Positions 32,911 to 39,168 of a stretch of DNA of 64,000 nt are shown here, one piece after another. The DNA comes from Ruminococcus sp. (GTDB taxonomy: Bacteria > Bacillota > Clostridia > Oscillospirales > Ruminococcaceae): positions 89,992 through 153,991 of the forward strand of contig JAFUXL010000011.1 in assembly GCA_017470905.1 (NCBI GenBank), in the 5' to 3' direction. The notes below the pieces were generated by a model. That model saw only the letters and a list, made by a program, of their open reading frames with translations. It was not told the origin of the DNA and ran no database searches. The translations under genes were made by a program, and so were the position numbers. Every line of letters starts with the position of its first letter. Position 1 is the stretch's first letter.

Positions 32911-33827
32911 AGAGATTTATATTTTCCGCCGTTCTTGCAGTGATGTTTCTTTTCGTCATGCCGCTGAATGCTCTGAATGCCGATGCTGCTTACAATTACG
33001 CAAAGGGCTATGACGGCGATATGGAGAAAATCGGTCTTTATGATGAATACGGGCTTTTCGGCGGAGACGAATTTGAAGAGATTGATACAATGATAGATAC
33101 ATACGCTGAACTGCTCGAAATGAATATAGCCGTATTTCTTGCGGACAGCTCATACGCATATTTTTCCGATTATCAGACGGAAATTTTCGCAGACGACAGC
33201 TATGACGAAATCTTCGGGGAGGATACGGACGGAGTATTCTATTATCTCGATTTGTCGGGAAAACGTCCTGCATATGATTATCTTTCCACAAGCGGAAAGT
33301 CTGTGCTTTACTATCAGGACAAAATAGACAGCAGAGAATTTGAAAGAACCATGATAAGCCACCTCCCCTCATCGGGCGAGGAAATAAGAGCCGAACAGAT
33401 ACACGATGCAATAACGGCTTTCTGCGATTTTCTCATGAACAGAAAAAACGAAAGCACAAGCTTTTCAAGGCATTACAAAGACAGCTCTTCGGGAAAGGTT
33501 TTCTATTACAAGAACGGTGAGCTTTTCATAACCAGGGGAAATGCCCCCTCTACCGTGCTTTTCATCACGTTCATATTCTTTCTCATAGGGCTTGTGACTT
33601 CACTGATAACAAAAGCCTGCGTAAAGAGCCATTACAAATTCAAGGCATCGGCAAATCCCGGTACTTATGTTTCGCAGCAAAATTCAAGGCTTAATATCCG
33701 AACCGATACGTTCCTGCGCACACATACATCAAGGGCAAAAATAGAGTCAAGCAGCGGCGGCAGAAGCGGCGGCGGAGGAGGTCATTCGCACGGTGGCGGT
33801 CACGGCGGCGGAGGCTACCACAGATAG
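32907..33827 (+). CDS. TPM-domain exported membrane protein
   Basis: About 306 residues: signal sequence (RFIFSAVLAVMFLFVMPLNA), an extracytoplasmic TPM domain (DEYGLFGGDEFEEIDTMIDT and later DTDGVFYYLDL), a membrane helix near 215-235 (TVLFITFIFFLIGLVTSLIT) and a cytoplasmic Gly/His-rich tail (SGGGGGHSHGGGHGGGGYHR) like that of YgcG. ATG 32907 overlaps the preceding stop as ATGA, so the two proteins are translationally coupled and probably interact. TPM domains are linked to membrane protein quality control and photosystem repair in other organisms. Confidence 0.82.
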   Translation: MKRFIFSAVLAVMFLFVMPLNALNADAAYNYAKGYDGDMEKIGLYDEYGLFGGDEFEEIDTMIDTYAELLEMNIAVFLADSSYAYFSDYQTEIFADDSYDEIFGEDTDGVFYYLDLSGKRPAYDYLSTSGKSVLYYQDKIDSREFERTMISHLPSSGEEIRAEQIHDAITAFCDFLMNRKNESTSFSRHYKDSSSGKVFYYKNGELFITRGNAPSTVLFITFIFFLIGLVTSLITKACVKSHYKFKASANPGTYVSQQNSRLNIRTDTFLRTHTSRAKIESSSGGRSGGGGGHSHGGGHGGGGYHR

Positions 33828-33935
33828 TAAGTAATTAATAATTCATAATGCATAATGCATAATTTGCAGGGCTTTCAGCCTTGCAGTTAAAGCATTGCCA
33901 CAGGCAATAATATAATTATGAATTATGCATTAAAT
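33828..33935. repeat. R3 AT-rich inverted-repeat element
   Basis: AATTCATAATGCATAAT at the left end and its inverted form at the right flank two small hairpins (AGGCT/AGCCT and ATTGCC/GGCAAT). It looks like a non-autonomous miniature element. Confidence 0.6.
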
Positions 33936-33951
33936 AAATGGAGGTTTTTAT

Positions 33952-35322
33952 ATGTCAAACGAAAAAATACCCTACAAAATTTATCTCTCGGAGGAGGAAC
34001 TCCCCAAACAGTGGTACAACGTGAGGGCGGATATGAAGAAAAAGCCTGCACCTCTCCTCAATCCTGCAACATTAAAGCCCGTAACGGCTGAGGAACTCGG
34101 TCATGTTTTCTGCGATGAGCTTGTCGCACAGGAGCTTGACGACACTACACCCTATATCGACATTCCCGATGAGATACAGAGCTTCTACAGAATGTACCGT
34201 CCGTCACCCCTCGTAAGAGCTTACTGCCTTGAAAAATATCTCGGCACTCCTGCAAAGATATACTACAAATTCGAGGGAAACAACACAAGCGGAAGCCATA
34301 AGCTCAATTCCGCAATCGCACAGGCTTATTATGCGAAAAAACAGGGTCTTAAAGGCGTTACCACCGAAACAGGAGCAGGTCAGTGGGGTACTGCGCTTTC
34401 AATGGCTTGTTCGTATTTCAACCTCGACTGCAAGGTATATATGGTAAAGGTATCCTACGAGCAGAAGCCCTTCAGACGTGAGGTAATGCGCACATACGGA
34501 GCGTCCGTTACTCCCTCGCCCTCGGATACGACAGAGGTCGGAAGAAAGATTTTATCCGAATTTCCCGACACTAACGGAAGTCTCGGCTGTGCAATATCCG
34601 AGGCTGTCGAGGCTGCAACTTCACAGGAAGGCTACCGTTATGTCCTCGGAAGTGTTCTCTCACAGGTACTTCTCCACCAGACAGTTATAGGCCTTGAAAC
34701 CAAGGCTGCAATGGACAAATACGGCATAAAACCCGATGTTATCATAGGCTGTGCAGGCGGCGGCTCAAATCTTGGCGGACTTATCGCACCTTTCATGGGC
34801 GAAAAGCTCAGAGGCGAGGCGGATTATAAAATAATTGCCGTTGAACCTGCATCATGCCCCAGCTTTACAAGAGGTATCTATGCATATGATTTCTGCGATA
34901 CCGGAAAGGTATGCCCCTTGCAGAAGATGTATACACTCGGCAGCGGATTTATGCCCTCGCCCAATCACGCAGGCGGTCTCAGATACCACGGTATGAGTGC
35001 CATTCTCTCGGAGCTTTACGACCAGAAATTAATGGACGCAATATCGGCTGAACAGACGGCAGTATTTGATGCCGCACAGCAGTTTGCAAGAGTTGAGGGA
35101 ATACTCCCGGCACCCGAAAGCAGCCACGCAATACGTGCGGCAATCGACGAGGCTGTCAGATGCAAGGAAACGGGCGAGGAGAAAACCATACTCTTCGGTC
35201 TTACCGGTACGGGATATTTTGATATGTATGCTTATGCGGCATATAATGACGGAAAAATGAGCGACTATATCCCGACTGATGACGAGCTTAAAAAATCCTT
35301 TGCTTCTCTCCCCAAGGTTTGA
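33952..35322 (+). CDS. Tryptophan synthase beta-like protein (TrpB2 type)
   Basis: A 456-residue PLP enzyme making tryptophan from indole and serine. The PLP lysine is in EGNNTSGSHKLNSA, the glycine loop is GCAGGGSNLGGL, and the extended N-terminus (YKIYLSEEELPKQWYNVRAD) marks the TrpB2 subgroup. No trpA or other trp genes are nearby, so it may scavenge indole or work with a distant pathway. GGAGG stands 7 nt before ATG. A terminator follows. Confidence 0.94.
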   Translation: MSNEKIPYKIYLSEEELPKQWYNVRADMKKKPAPLLNPATLKPVTAEELGHVFCDELVAQELDDTTPYIDIPDEIQSFYRMYRPSPLVRAYCLEKYLGTPAKIYYKFEGNNTSGSHKLNSAIAQAYYAKKQGLKGVTTETGAGQWGTALSMACSYFNLDCKVYMVKVSYEQKPFRREVMRTYGASVTPSPSDTTEVGRKILSEFPDTNGSLGCAISEAVEAATSQEGYRYVLGSVLSQVLLHQTVIGLETKAAMDKYGIKPDVIIGCAGGGSNLGGLIAPFMGEKLRGEADYKIIAVEPASCPSFTRGIYAYDFCDTGKVCPLQKMYTLGSGFMPSPNHAGGLRYHGMSAILSELYDQKLMDAISAEQTAVFDAAQQFARVEGILPAPESSHAIRAAIDEAVRCKETGEEKTILFGLTGTGYFDMYAYAAYNDGKMSDYIPTDDELKKSFASLPKV

Positions 35323-35343
35323 TTCAGTTCTGAATATTAAGTA

Positions 35344-35371
35344 TCCCCCGTTTTGCAGCGGGGGATTTTTT
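35344..35371 (+). terminator. Terminator of the trpB2 gene
   Basis: TCCCCCG / CGGGGGA stem followed by TTTTTT. Confidence 0.92.
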
Positions 35372-35612
35372 AGTATAATTCCTGTTCAAGATTTCTGAAA
35401 TTTTCCGTATTGAAAAAATCGGTTATTGTTATATTAAGCCCGTCACATAATTTTTTGATTGTCACTATGCCTATATTTTTAACATGATGATTGACAATGC
35501 AGTTTACGGTTGATTGTGTAATGCCTGAAATATTGCAAAGTTTATTGACAGTGATATTGCGTTCATCACAAAGCTCCAGTATACGTTCCGCAACGACTTC
35601 TGAAATTCCCAT
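35370..35612 (-). CDS. Small XRE-type regulator
   Basis: An 80-residue Cro/CI-type DNA-binding protein (LCDERNITVNKLCNISGITQ, then STVNCIVNHH and IGIVTIKKLCDGLNITITDF). It lies divergent from a two-peptide unit whose promoter is embedded in repeated AACGAT-type dyads, so it is the likely regulator of that unit. Start after GGAGTGTG. The leader holds an R4 hairpin. Confidence 0.85.
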   Translation of the reverse strand: MGISEVVAERILELCDERNITVNKLCNISGITQSTVNCIVNHHVKNIGIVTIKKLCDGLNITITDFFNTENFRNLEQELY

Positions 35613-35643
35613 AGTATCACACTCCGTTGATTTTATAATGTTT

Positions 35644-35674
35644 GTATCTCCCCCGCATCGGGCGGGGGAGATAC
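35644..35674. repeat. R4 hairpin in the XRE leader
   Basis: Perfect 13-bp stem GTATCTCCCCCGC / GCGGGGGAGATAC with a 5-nt loop, about 30 nt upstream of the XRE start. Confidence 0.7.
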
Positions 35675-35715
35675 GGCTTTTATGGTTATGATACCATTTT
35701 TAAAAGAAAATACTT

Positions 35716-35872
35716 GTTGATAAATCGTTGATTTTCGACAAATTTCGACAAAAAAGTGTCTTATTGTGTATAATGCACAAATCGGACGTTTAAACTTTGT
35801 GCATAAAAATTAACGATAAATCGTTGACATTTTAGAAAACTTGTGATATAATACATATAACGATAAAACGTT
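35716..35872. promoter_or_regulatory. Promoter and repeated operators of the two-peptide unit
   Basis: Promoter TTGACA (35824-35829), 17-bp spacer, TATAAT (35847-35852). Dyad AACGATAAATCGTT (35812-35825) overlaps the -35, AACGATAAAACGTT (35859-35872) covers the transcription start, and GTTGATAAATCGTT (35716-35729) is a third, weaker copy. A separate dyad TGCACAAA / TTTGTGCA spans 35774-35803. The layout is that of a tightly repressed promoter. Confidence 0.8.
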
Positions 35873-35895
35873 AATAAATATACGGAGGTGGAATT

Positions 35896-35973
35896 ATGAT
35901 ATTGGGATGGATTCTTCCGATAATCTGCACTCCTGTATTGCCTGCTCCTTATTTTTGGAGATGGTTAAGGTAA
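35896..35973 (+). CDS. 25-residue hydrophobic peptide A
   Basis: An ORF with an ideal ribosome-binding site (GGAGGTG, 5-6 nt spacing). The peptide is hydrophobic and Pro-rich (MILGWILPIICTPVLPAP begins it), has three Trp and ends in a Trp/Arg-rich tail (WRWLR). Long enough for one membrane span, no signal peptide. Together with peptide B it forms its own transcription unit with promoter and terminator. Candidate membrane-active toxin, leaderless bacteriocin, or small membrane regulator; no family recognised. Confidence 0.7.
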   Translation: MILGWILPIICTPVLPAPYFWRWLR

Positions 35974-36041
35974 TCAGTTTATAGTGTTAATCTGCGGTAA
36001 TGCAACTGTACTGCTATTCCGTATGCGAAAGGAGGATAACT

Positions 36042-36119
36042 ATGGGATTTTTGATTTACTCAGGTGCTGTCGGCATTTCAACAGCAATCTACTCAATCTG
36101 GGTTTTACGCCATCGCTAA
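36042..36119 (+). CDS. 25-residue hydrophobic peptide B
   Basis: An ORF of exactly the same length as peptide A, 68 bp downstream, with AAAGGAGG 6-7 nt before its ATG. It has a hydrophobic core (GFLIYSGAVGISTAIYSIWV) and a basic end (LRHR), the pattern of a single membrane helix with a positive cytoplasmic tail. A strong terminator follows, so the unit ends here, just before the promoter of the NatAB-like exporter. Confidence 0.7.
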   Translation: MGFLIYSGAVGISTAIYSIWVLRHR

Positions 36120-36159
36120 TTGGCATTTAACATTAAGGCTTTGATATTTAACACTGAAA

Positions 36160-36197
36160 ACAGTCTTTCGTGTACAGTACGAAAGGCTGTATTTTTG
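36160..36197 (+). terminator. Terminator of the two-peptide unit
   Basis: A 12-bp stem (ACAGTCTTTCGT / ACGAAAGGCTGT, one wobble) followed by ATTTTTG. Confidence 0.9.
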
Positions 36198-36208
36198 TAA
36201 TATAAATA

Positions 36209-36237
36209 TTGACAAATCATGAATAATCTGTTATAAT
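36209..36237 (+). promoter_or_regulatory. Promoter of the NatAB-like exporter
   Basis: TTGACA, 17-bp spacer, TATAAT. The exporter start is about 105 nt downstream. Confidence 0.85.
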
Positions 36238-36343
36238 CAAATATGTTAATAACCATGTTTATACAGACTAAAGAATAAAGAAAAAAGAATAATGAATAAA
36301 TAATAATAATTTTTAATTATAAATTAATAACAGGGGGATTTCT

Positions 36344-37084
36344 ATGGAAAAAGTTCTTGAAGTAAAGGAACTGTCAAAAAAATATTCAAAGGTATTCGCC
36401 GCCGATAAAGTATCTTTTGATATAGACAAGGGGGAGATATTCGCCCTCATCGGTCCGAACGGCGCAGGAAAGACTACTACTATCCGCATGATTGCGACAC
36501 TCCTTACGCCTACCTCGGGAGATGCGGTCGTGGCAGGTCACAGCGTTGTAAACGAGCCGTCAAAGGTCAGGGAATGTATTACATATCTTCCCGATGAGGC
36601 AGGAGCTTACAAGACAATGAAAGGCATTGAATATCTTAAATTTATGGCAGGACTTTTTACAACCGACAGCAGGCAGATTGAACAGTTTGTCCAGAGGGCT
36701 AAGGATATAAACGGTCTGGGCGACAGACTGAACGACAAGATAGGCACATACAGCAGAGGCATGATTAGAAAGCTTTTATTATCCCGTGCAGTAATGACCA
36801 AGCCGAAGCTTGCAATACTCGATGAGCCGACAAGCGGTCTTGATGTACTCAATGCACTTGATATAAGAAAGACTATAAAACGTCTCGCCGCCGAGGAGGG
36901 TATGTCGTTCCTGCTGTCCTCGCATAATATGCTTGAAATAGAATTTGTCTCTGACCGTGTTGGGATAATTGCAAAGGGTCATTTAATGGTTACGGGCAGG
37001 ACGGATGAATTGAAACAGCGTTACAATGCCCCTAATCTTGAGGAAGTCTTTGAAAGGGTGGTGCTTGAAAATGAAATTCATTAA
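36344..37084 (+). CDS. ABC exporter ATPase (NatA type)
   Basis: A 246-residue ATPase with Walker A GPNGAGKTT, signature YSRGM, Walker B LAILDEPTSGLD and H-loop SSHNML. It overlaps the permease gene (start 37071) and would power it. Family members extrude Na+ or export peptides and antibiotics. GGGGGA precedes ATG. Confidence 0.93.
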   Translation: MEKVLEVKELSKKYSKVFAADKVSFDIDKGEIFALIGPNGAGKTTTIRMIATLLTPTSGDAVVAGHSVVNEPSKVRECITYLPDEAGAYKTMKGIEYLKFMAGLFTTDSRQIEQFVQRAKDINGLGDRLNDKIGTYSRGMIRKLLLSRAVMTKPKLAILDEPTSGLDVLNALDIRKTIKRLAAEEGMSFLLSSHNMLEIEFVSDRVGIIAKGHLMVTGRTDELKQRYNAPNLEEVFERVVLENEIH

Positions 37085-38414
37085 TCTGCTGAAAAAAGAA
37101 CTTAAAGAGCTGATAAATACCCAGATGATTATAAGTCTTGTCGTTGTCATGGTTATGCTTATGGCGGTCGGAAATCTGATGACTTCAACAATCAACGAGG
37201 TTTCAAAAACGGAATATAAAATATCCCTGAGTGACAGGGACGATACGGATTTTACAAAATCAATGCTCGAAAAACTGAAGGAAAACGGAAATGTAATAAC
37301 CCTGATTGATACTCAGGGCGATGATTATGCAGGAATATTGAACGAAAACAATCTCGACAGCATTGTAATTATCCCGGAGGGCTTTACAGATGCGATAGAC
37401 AAAAACGAAAAGCCGCAGCTTATCACCGTATCACGTATGGAGTCGGCGGCTATGATGTCCAATATCGGAAATCATGTTTCGGACATCACAAGCCTGATAA
37501 GGTCGTGCATATATGAGGAGCTGTCGCAGAGGGCGGGCATTTCCGACGAAGAACTGAAATACATGAACAATCCCGTTGATATTATTGACAATACGGTGGT
37601 TTCCGATAAATCCGCCTCCATTTCAGTCGATACCATAATGAACAATGTAATGATGAAAAATCAGATACTGCCCATTATTGTATTCGTTCTTATTATGATG
37701 GTTTCGCAGATGATTATGAGTGCGATAGCAAACGAAAAGATTGACAAGACCCTTGAAACGCTGCTTTCCGCACCCGTTTCGAGAAGCTCAGTCATAGGCG
37801 CAAAAATGCTTGCGGCGGCGATAGTGGCTTTATTGAATGCAGTGTTCTATATGATAGGCTTTTCGTCATTTATGTCAGGCACTGTCGGCAGTACAATGAG
37901 TACGAGTGTGAATATGGAACAGCTCACGGAGGGTATCGGCTCTGTGGGAGATATAATCTCAACAGAGGTCAAGCTTTCACAGCTTGGATTGTCACTTTCG
38001 GTAACGGATTATCTCCTTGTCGGATTACAGCTTTTCATTACAATAATGATATGTCTTTCGATTTCGATAATACTGGGCGCACTGGTGAACGATGTAAAAT
38101 CTTCACAGACCATGCTCATGCCCCTGCTTATGCTTGCAATGGTTCCTTATATGGTTTCACTCTTTGCAGATGTAAACAGCCTGCCCGCCGGGTTCAGAAT
38201 ACTTGTATATGCGATACCGTTTACGCATACATTTTCTGCGATTAGCAATCTTATGTTCGGGCATGACCTTATATTTGTCATGGGGCTGGTATATCAGGTT
38301 ATAGTGCTTGCGGTGTGCATGTTCTTTGCGCTGAGGCTTTTCAACTCCGACAAGATACTCACCATATCGCTCAATTTCGGAAAAAAAGACAAGCGCAGCA
38401 ATTCTGATGTATAA
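37071..38414 (+). CDS. ABC exporter permease (NatB type)
   Basis: A 447-residue ABC-2 permease: one N-terminal helix (MIISLVVVMVMLMAVGNLM), a large extracytoplasmic domain (about 40-195), then five helices including IANEKIDKTLETLLSAPVSR, a hallmark of NatB/YhaP-like permeases. Start 37071 follows AAAGGGTGG; the longer frame lies inside the ATPase gene. It may remove the neighbouring hydrophobic peptides, but this is only suggested by position. Confidence 0.9.
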   Translation: MKFINLLKKELKELINTQMIISLVVVMVMLMAVGNLMTSTINEVSKTEYKISLSDRDDTDFTKSMLEKLKENGNVITLIDTQGDDYAGILNENNLDSIVIIPEGFTDAIDKNEKPQLITVSRMESAAMMSNIGNHVSDITSLIRSCIYEELSQRAGISDEELKYMNNPVDIIDNTVVSDKSASISVDTIMNNVMMKNQILPIIVFVLIMMVSQMIMSAIANEKIDKTLETLLSAPVSRSSVIGAKMLAAAIVALLNAVFYMIGFSSFMSGTVGSTMSTSVNMEQLTEGIGSVGDIISTEVKLSQLGLSLSVTDYLLVGLQLFITIMICLSISIILGALVNDVKSSQTMLMPLLMLAMVPYMVSLFADVNSLPAGFRILVYAIPFTHTFSAISNLMFGHDLIFVMGLVYQVIVLAVCMFFALRLFNSDKILTISLNFGKKDKRSNSDV

Positions 38415-38431
38415 AAAACCATGATAAAAAC

Positions 38432-38460
38432 AATTTCCCCCGTCTGCGACGGGGGAAATT
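38432..38460. terminator. Bidirectional terminator
   Basis: A 13-bp stem AATTTCCCCCGTC / GACGGGGGAAATT with a 3-nt loop between converging natB and sigE genes; flanking sequence resembles an R1 remnant. Confidence 0.8.
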
Positions 38461-38466
38461 TCTGCT

Positions 38467-39168
38467 TCATGATATTTTTTCAAGCCTTGAACGTAGCTTT
38501 TTAATAATTTTCTTTTCAAGTCTCGATATGTATGACTGTGATATGCCGATAAGCTCGGCAACCTCTTTCTGGGTTTTTTCTTTTCCGTCAACAAGTCCGA
38601 AACGCATTTCCATTATCTCCCTTTCACGGTCGCACAGTTCGGCAACGGCATCACGGAGCATTTCTCTTTCGGCTTCGCTTTCTATTCCTCTGCTGACGAC
38701 GTCCTCGTCCGTTCCGAGAACATCGGAAAGGAGCAGTTCGTTTCCGTCATAATCTATATTCAGCGGCTCGTCTATGGAAAGGTCATTCCTGTACTGCGAT
38801 GCCTTGCGCATGAACATCAGTATTTCATTTTCAATGCACCTTGATGCATATGTGGCGAGCTTTATGTTTTTCGTGGGGCAGAAGGTGTTCACAGCCTTGA
38901 TAAGACCTATTGTTCCTATTGAAACTAAATCCTCTATGCCGACACCGGATGACTCGAATTTTTTCGCTATGTATACGACAAGCCTTAAATTATGCACTAT
39001 GAGGATATTTCTTGCCTCACGGTCGTTATTGACAAGCCGTATGAAAACATCGTCCTCTTCCTCTCGTGTAAGCGGAGGAGGGAGCGTGTCTGCGCCGTTT
39101 ACATAATAGACCTCTCCGCTGCCGAAAAGCTCCATTATTTTCCTGAGTATCTCTTTTATCTTGTTCAT
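38467..39168 (-). CDS. sigE: Sporulation sigma factor SigE (pro-form)
   Basis: A 233-residue mother-cell sigma factor. It has a short pro-sequence ([14 protein letters not shown]) ending near the processing region [20 protein letters not shown], then regions 2 ([20 protein letters not shown] and [20 protein letters not shown]) and 4 ([20 protein letters not shown]). The start 39168 follows GGAGAG; upstream codons overlap spoIIGA. It lies 28 bp after spoIIGA, the conserved order. It shows the host makes endospores or retains this machinery. Confidence 0.96.

What the first reader, a model, noticed from the sequence alone, without database searches (positions are those of the whole stretch)
35716..36197. 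Self-contained unit of two 25-residue hydrophobic peptides beside an XRE regulator and an ABC exporter
Between an 80-residue XRE gene and a NatAB-like exporter there is a promoter with three AACGAT-type dyads, two ORFs of exactly 25 codons (35896-35973, 36042-36119), each with a near-perfect ribosome-binding site, and a 12-bp-stem terminator. Peptide A is Pro/Trp-rich with a WRWLR end, peptide B looks like one membrane helix with basic end. Such tight packaging implies both are made. Candidates: paired leaderless bacteriocin with exporter, repressed membrane toxin pair, or small membrane signalling proteins. No known family was recognised.
Basis: partly seen in the sequence, partly recalled or inferred. 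Interest (0 to 1): 0.82.

Follow-up and report, generated by a model that had tools for sequence, protein, structure and literature searches.

The report
Repressed mini-peptide operon with kissing mRNA
A Ruminococcus genome carries a tiny gene unit for one or two 25-residue membrane-like peptides, apparently kept silent by a neighbouring repressor and by an mRNA whose start and end hairpins are built to pair with each other; it is probably a small, tightly controlled membrane-acting peptide system.

Summary
In detail: XRE gene, promoter with AACGAT dyads (two good, one degenerate), two 25-codon ORFs with strong Shine-Dalgarno sites, terminator. The NatAB exporter is a core gene of the genus with its own promoter. 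The XRE is the conserved partner: of 80 named loci with a relative (56-86% identical), 62 have at least one such dyad beside it and 36 a pair 41-50 bp apart, but the gene behind the promoter changes. In 11 of 84 sequences examined it is a hydrophobic peptide of 19-32 residues.

New here: in five species, this one included, the peptide-B mRNA has a hairpin about 30 nt before the ATG whose 7-nt loop is complementary to the 7-nt terminator loop. Three different loop pairs occur and all match (35 of 35 pair cells; 4 of 7 pairs changed on both sides). The composite was found at only these five places in about 1.04 Mb of fetched sequence. Peptide A is probably a real but optional gene.

Best reading: a locally repressed membrane peptide whose mRNA closes into a leader-terminator kissing complex that limits translation, working like LexA-TisB/DinQ and hok/AapA mRNAs but filed under neither. 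Expression, toxicity and function are inferred.

The parts
35370..35612 (-). XRE/HTH_26 regulator, 80 aa; divergent to the peptide operon; Cys38 in the presumed recognition helix instead of the usual Asp38
   Evidence: Pfam HTH_26 47.4 bits against cutoff 22; matches at E<=1e-12 in 45 of 125 genus genomes, own included; alignments A1/A2
35718..35729 (.). degenerate third dyad (half site TGATAAATCGTT)
   Evidence: sequence
35812..35825 (.). operator 1, AACGATAAATCGTT, abutting the -35
   Evidence: dyads of this kind beside the XRE in 62 of 80 named loci
35824..35852 (+). promoter TTGACA-17-TATAAT, 12 of 12, TG before -10
35859..35872 (.). operator 2, AACGATAAAACGTT, over the expected start of transcription
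   Evidence: 47 bp from operator 1, the commonest spacing in relatives (27 of the 36 pairs)
35896..35973 (+). peptide A, MILGWILPIICTPVLPAPYFWRWLR; optional first ORF
   Evidence: homologue MFWWLFPIISSPIITIPHISRWFN in L010/L127 (tblastn 42% over 19 aa, E 3.5e-4); codon-position identity 11/23, 19/23, 11/23 in a hand alignment
35993..36023 (+). leader hairpin of peptide B; 7-nt loop ACTGTAC at 36005-36011
36042..36119 (+). peptide B, MGFLIYSGAVGISTAIYSIWVLRHR
   Evidence: SD AAAGGAGG directly upstream; positional counterparts of 20-33 aa in L125, L127, L149, L186
36160..36190 (+). intrinsic terminator; 7-nt loop GTACAGT at 36172-36178, complementary to the leader loop
36344..38414 (+). neighbouring NatAB-type ABC-2 exporter (36344-37084 and 37071-38414); judged NOT part of the unit
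   Evidence: own promoter 36209-36237; NatA in 92 of 100 genus genomes, XRE upstream in 4 of 87 checked

Best explanation
The unit is a locally repressed operon for one (B) or two (A+B) small membrane-inserting peptides. Step 1: the XRE dimer binds two dyads, one beside -35 and one over +1, and shuts its target promoter (inferred from position, conservation and a specificity change; binding not shown). Step 2: when repression is lifted, a terminated mRNA of about 330 nt is made (inferred). Step 3: in that mRNA the 7-nt loop of the hairpin in front of peptide B's ribosome site kisses the 7-nt terminator loop. The pairing is supported by covariation; its effect is inferred: it probably brings the 5' arm of the terminator onto the ribosome site, so that finished transcripts are translated poorly unless opened or trimmed. 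Step 4: the peptide acts on the cell's own membrane as a stress or growth-control peptide (inferred from size, hydrophobicity and double control). Confidence by step: XRE acts through the dyads 0.85, kissing pairing 0.85, translation lowered by it 0.5, membrane-active growth control 0.45.
For: Dyads beside the XRE in 62 of 80 named loci, 46 with one 50-90 nt from the XRE start, 36 with a pair, 48 directly followed by a promoter. In the genus the operator-promoter pattern occurs 34 times in 30 of 125 genomes, 26 of the 34 beside an XRE by coordinates, against 1 hit of the reversed control. Cys38 goes with AACGAT-type operators in 2 of 2; Asp38 with CGGT-type in 59 of 81 loci. Kissing helix: 35 of 35 cells paired, 4 of 7 pairs changed on both sides; whole structure 97.4% paired against 25-53% when slid. 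Shuffled leaders give such a hairpin in 5-11 of 20000 per locus. 22 hits in 386 sequences, all copies of the same five loci, about 1.04 Mb distinct. Permuted-loop control mean 0.3, maximum 2, against 7 rows. Peptides hydrophobic. Terminator 5' arm against SD: the five rank 3, 18, 21, 22, 24 of 129 units.
Against: No expression, binding or toxicity data. Only 5 of 11 hydrophobic-peptide loci have the kissing loops (L137, L141, L158, L172, L178, L280 do not). Three of the five share one loop pair, so independent pairs number three. The anti-SD signal is mild. RNAfold of the whole window transcript is not unusually stable (z -1.5) nor is the leader alone (z 0.5). L203 has Asp38 with an AACGAT-type operator, 4 further Asp38 loci have mixed ones and 13 none; one search pattern contained Asp38, so the sample leans that way. 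18 of 80 named loci show no dyad by my pattern (4 of the 80 are too short). 8 of 34 operator sites are not beside a known XRE. Peptide B is too divergent for a dN/dS test. In many species the XRE promoter drives something quite different or nothing recognisable.
Confidence: 0.5

Rival explanations
1. Leaderless bacteriocin (one or two peptides) exported by the neighbouring ABC transporter; XRE represses production.
For: Hydrophobic peptides with basic, Trp-containing ends; fast divergence between close species while leader and terminator stay; four of five kissing units lie next to a NatAB (window, L125, L127, L149), and L172 reads as lying before an ABC ATPase; other XRE-driven genes read like secreted proteins.
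Against: NatAB is a core gene, found upstream-linked to an XRE in 4 and to peptides in 3 of 87 regions. L186 lies beside genes that read like serA and serC. Terminator and separate promoter uncouple peptides and exporter. No family match for the peptides in Pfam or NCBIfam.
Confidence: 0.2
2. Small membrane proteins that regulate a membrane partner (for example NatAB) rather than a toxin.
For: Recurrent neighbourhood with NatAB; single hydrophobic stretch.
Against: Divergence far above that of the partner (NatA 93% and XRE 84% identical to L127, peptide A 42% over 19 aa); L186 is away from NatAB.
Confidence: 0.17
3. The transcript acts mainly as a regulatory RNA: the kissing hairpins pair with other RNAs or dimerise, and the ORF is incidental.
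For: Leader and terminator conserved better than the ORF; some relatives make a short terminated transcript with no clear ORF (L134, L147, L155, L162, L169); by eye L134 and L155 have 6-nt complementary stretches.
Against: Each of the five units has an SD and an open hydrophobic ORF between the hairpins. The five ORF-less relatives gave no significant loop match, although the hairpin that the script picked for L155 and L169 is probably not their terminator.
Confidence: 0.1
4. Complementary loops are DNA inverted repeats (recombination or inversion sites) that let the ORF be exchanged.
For: ORFs between conserved flanks look unrelated in window, L125, L127.
Against: Only 7 bp; each copy lies in a hairpin loop and one copy always in a terminator; loops change together between species.
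Confidence: 0.05

Closest known systems
TisB and DinQ of E. coli (LexA-repressed single-helix toxic peptides)
   Same: 27-29 aa hydrophobic peptide under a repressor; for dinQ two operators overlapped by the promoter and only one of five transcripts translated (passages of PMC3567139; TisB passages of PMC8309996)
   Different: Repressor is a stand-alone XRE gene, not LexA; no antisense promoter common to the five units; leader-terminator kissing loops; no family match
hok/Sok and aapA/IsoA mRNAs with 5'-3' long-distance interaction
   Same: mRNA ends pair across the small ORF and hide the ribosome site (passages of PMC6733600)
   Different: Here a discrete 7-nt loop-loop pair between an SD-near hairpin and the intrinsic terminator; hiding of the ribosome site not shown; no antisense RNA seen; other peptides
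Fst/par type I system
   Same: Terminator loop used for a kissing RNA pairing, small hydrophobic toxin (passages of PMC7472228)
   Different: There the pairing is between two RNAs, and the family has a PxxxGC motif (passage of PMC8309996) that both peptides lack; here the pairing is inside one mRNA
Prophage Lp1 protein 11 (PDB 3b7h)
   Same: Only solved chain matched by the XRE profile at E<=0.001, E 1.3e-17
   Different: Listed only as a structure; no peptide operon known to me

Membership tests
HTH_26 / Cro-C1 (XRE) regulators | Score above the curated Pfam cutoff | tested here: met
   47.4 bits against 22
Type I toxin-antitoxin | Small hydrophobic peptide, under 60 aa, one helix | tested here: met
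   25 aa each, best 18-residue hydropathy 1.74 and 1.47; helix not modelled
Type I toxin-antitoxin | Antisense RNA antitoxin | tested here: inconclusive
   Weak minus-strand promoter-like matches in window (10/12), L125 and L127 (9/12), none in L149 and L186; an RNA made elsewhere cannot be excluded
Type I toxin-antitoxin | Expression stops growth or damages the membrane | not testable with these tools
   needs experiment
LexA-regulated TisB/DinQ | Controlled by LexA | tested here: not met
   Neighbouring regulator is an 80-aa HTH_26 XRE; operators of its type lie beside XRE genes in 26 of 34 sites. No LexA box search was run
Fst/Ldr toxins | PxxxGC motif | tested here: not met
   Absent from both peptides by reading; motif as given in a passage of PMC8309996
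Leaderless bacteriocin with dedicated exporter | Exporter co-occurs with the peptide | tested here: not met
   Exporter usually without peptides: 3 of 87 upstream regions
Rgg/SHP-type peptide quorum sensing (recalled) | Regulator with a peptide-binding C-terminal domain | tested here: not met
   Regulator is 80 aa, HTH over residues 10-70
Known RNA families | Rfam match | tested here: not met
   No match up to E 1 in 33800-38500

The most novel reading that the evidence does not exclude
A new class of peptide-mRNA control element: an SD-near hairpin and the intrinsic terminator of the same short mRNA kiss through co-evolving 7-nt loops, closing the message around a 20-33 residue membrane peptide, and the whole is a replaceable cargo of a one-target XRE repressor module that carries different secreted or membrane proteins in different Ruminococcus species.
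Probability: 0.5. Interest if true: 0.76.

Novelty: new variant of a known kind. Interest (0 to 1): 0.62.

Why it matters
It would be a repressed small membrane peptide system in a common rumen and gut genus, where my eight literature searches showed none described, and a clean natural case (three covarying 7-nt loop pairs) for testing how a terminator can control translation of its own message. The exchangeable cargo behind one XRE promoter gives a handle for finding further small secreted and membrane proteins.

Tried and rejected
Peptide B by tblastn in 199 relatives found only itself above noise (next best E 0.14). DNA search with the leader in 125 genus genomes gave two real relatives (G025, G060); a guaA-leader hit in G009/L098 and eleven others were read and set aside as unrelated, the rest of a long, cut list was not read. 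The 39-aa reading of peptide B from ATG 36000 was rejected: a stop in L127 and no ATG in L125 at that place. Rfam, Pfam, NCBIfam, PADLOC and PHROGs gave no family for the two window peptides; a PHROG match of E 0.0087 to the L127 peptide was judged too weak. XRE relatives in viral contigs (8, at 51-56%), phages and plasmids are more distant; the nearest plasmid one (L328, 66%) has no operator of this type and reads as driving a larger protein. The leader pattern is absent from viral contigs. An antisense promoter common to the five units was looked for and not found. Energy folding alone gave no support for the leader. Loop matches in L144 and L197 (shuffle values 0.037 and 0.043, next after the five) are not peptide units and were not followed. 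L158 has two peptides but no loop match. Literature: eight searches showed nothing on such an element; of papers I saw listings, and passages of PMC3567139, PMC8309996, PMC6733600 and PMC7472228.

Full report
Observation. The XRE gene (35370-35612, -) is followed on the other strand by a perfect sigma-70-type promoter (35824-35852) between two AACGAT dyads (35812-35825, 35859-35872), two 25-codon ORFs and a terminator (36160-36190). A third dyad (35718-35729) is only a degenerate half. In the 64-kb window the two peptides are the only ORFs of 15-40 aa behind a full AGGAGG/GGAGGT/GGAGGA site at 3-8 nt from ATG (29 rows). The genome held (2.04 Mb, 74% complete) has the strict dyad three times, two of them here.

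The exporter is mostly a bystander. NatA has a match at E<=1e-60 in 92 of 100 genus genomes. I looked at the sequence upstream of 87 of these 92 genes (30 loci and 57 fetched; five were cut by contig ends and left out; a few of the 87 are short). An XRE of this type lies there in 4 of 87, and peptides in 3 of those 4. The exporter also has its own perfect promoter behind the terminator. Against this, four of the five kissing units found lie next to a NatAB, so the neighbourhood is old or preferred, but not a dedicated pair.

The XRE and its promoter are the conserved core. Matches at E<=1e-12 occur in 45 of 125 genus genomes, own included. A scan of the GTDB collection with two peptide patterns gave 87 relatives; the 80 best were kept, 56-86% identical, and two genomes give two loci each: Ruminococcus and other Oscillospiraceae MAGs, R. 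flavefaciens, and more distant ones in Lutispora, Acetivibrio, Desulfosporosinus and others. By my pattern 62 of the 80 have at least one dyad near the XRE, 46 have one 50-90 nt from its start, 36 have a pair 41-50 bp apart (27 at 47 bp, as in the window), and in 48 the dyad is directly followed by a promoter; 4 of the 80 are too short to tell. In the genus the pattern CGGTNNACCGTTGAC occurs 34 times in 30 of 125 genomes, 26 of the 34 beside an XRE when coordinates are compared, 8 not, against one hit of the reversed pattern. So it looks like a local regulator, mostly with one target. In the window and in L125 the XRE has Cys38 where others have Asp38, and both have AACGAT-type in place of ACGGT-type operators. 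Of 81 loci tabulated, 59 have Asp38 with CGGT operators (6 of them with a mixed second one), 4 have Asp38 with mixed operators only, 13 Asp38 with none found, 2 others none found, and one, L203, is an exception with Asp38 and an AACGAT-type operator. One of the search patterns contained Asp38, so the sample leans towards it. By recalled alignment with the 434 repressor, position 38 lies in the recognition helix.

What the promoter drives varies. Of 84 sequences examined (80 named, the window, L280, L328, L329), the first SD-preceded ORF within 200 nt was a protein over 35 aa in 46, a hydrophobic peptide of up to 35 aa in 11, another peptide in 1, none in 14; 8 had no recognisable promoter or operator and 4 were truncated. 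The larger products look, on reading, like secreted proteins, small membrane proteins and zinc-ribbon proteins; no family search was run on them.

Peptides. Peptide A has a homologue in L010/L127 (42% over 19 aa, E 3.5e-4). In a hand alignment with one codon gapped, codon positions are identical at 11/23, 19/23 and 11/23, the pattern expected of a selected hydrophobic protein rather than drifting DNA; it is one pair of species. L125 has no peptide A, so A is optional. Two small peptides in tandem occur also in L158. Peptide B has positional counterparts in L125, L127, L149 and L186 with 20-33 residues, hydrophobic, too divergent to align with confidence, while the leader around it is 90-93% identical in window, L125 and L127 and the terminator loop unchanged.

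The RNA element. In front of peptide B lies a hairpin with a 7-nt loop ACUGUAC; the terminator loop is GUACAGU, its exact reverse complement. L127 and L125 keep both loops, L125 with a compensatory change in the leader stem. L149 has AGGAUGC with GCAUCCU and L186 has ACCAUAC with GUGUGGU (one G-U). None of the three leader loops pairs with another's terminator loop. In a hand-made alignment of the five (leader hairpin and terminator joined, ORF left out) the kissing helix has 35 of 35 cells paired and 4 of 7 pairs with changes on both sides; for the whole structure 97.4% of cells pair against 25-53% when partners are slid. The alignment was made knowing the structure, so it leans towards it; the shuffle test does not depend on it: base-shuffled leaders contain such a hairpin in 5 to 11 of 20000 trials per locus. 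A search of 386 fetched sequences (about 1.04 Mb distinct), both strands, for hairpin-SD-ORF-terminator with matching loops gave 22 hits, all overlapping copies of the same five loci. An earlier, stricter scan gave 7 rows, all from the five loci, among 76 candidates in 316 sequences, against a mean of 0.3 and a maximum of 2 with permuted loops. In a test over 30 loci with a terminator the five had the five lowest shuffle values (0 to 0.03), followed by L144 (0.037) and L197 (0.043), which are not peptide units. Six of the 11 hydrophobic-peptide loci do not have the loop match. No Rfam family matches.

Mechanism. Supported by sequence evidence: operators and their XRE, the loop-loop pairing, the coding nature of peptide A. 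Inferred: repression, translation of B, the effect of the kissing pair on translation, and what the peptides do. The 5' arm of the terminator can pair with the ribosome site of peptide B; energies of the five rank 3, 18, 21, 22 and 24 of 129 units, a mild signal. I take the most likely role to be a conditional membrane-acting peptide with two locks, one on transcription and one on translation. That is how TisB and DinQ (LexA) and the hok and aapA messages (5'-3' pairing) work, as seen in passages of PMC3567139, PMC8309996 and PMC6733600. It is not filed as a type I toxin-antitoxin system: window, L125 and L127 have only weak minus-strand promoter-like matches near the exporter start and L149 and L186 none, and toxicity is untested.

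Literature. Eight searches of the open PMC library showed no description of this unit or of a leader-terminator kissing pair on a peptide mRNA in this group; subscription journals are mostly not held and only listings were seen for most hits, so this is a limited statement.

Noticed in passing
window 36255-36327: AT-rich stretch in front of the exporter gene with nine partial matches (24-63 bases, 83-100% identical) elsewhere in the same genome; looks like a small dispersed repeat.
   Followed up: no
window 35642-35676: Very stable G+C hairpin (z -6.8) in the 5' leader of the XRE gene, absent at that place from L125; similar stretches at two places of contig C9 of the genome.
   Followed up: partly
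window 35718-35803: Remnant of a second promoter-operator (TCGACA-18-TATAAT, 11 of 12) and an inverted repeat GCACAAA/TTTGTGC between XRE and the active promoter; a similar doubled arrangement is seen by eye in L125, L149, L324 and L325.
   Followed up: partly
L134, L147, L155, L162, L169, L176: Close XREs whose divergent promoter seems to make only a short terminated transcript with no clear ORF, several beside a gene that reads like serA: possible small RNA or decayed peptide unit.
   Followed up: partly
L280, L141 (= L325), L172: Cys/Trp-rich hydrophobic peptides of 22-25 aa directly behind the XRE promoter without the leader hairpin.
   Followed up: partly
L227-L244 and L189-L204: More distant XRE relatives: many of the first group use TGAGTT/AACTCA-type dyads and drive proteins that read like SLOG-domain proteins; several of the second drive 57-68 aa proteins that read like Spo0E-like regulators, some before genes that read like conjugation genes (labels recalled).
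   Followed up: no
L278: Three tandem XRE genes of this family in one Ruminococcus genome.
   Followed up: no
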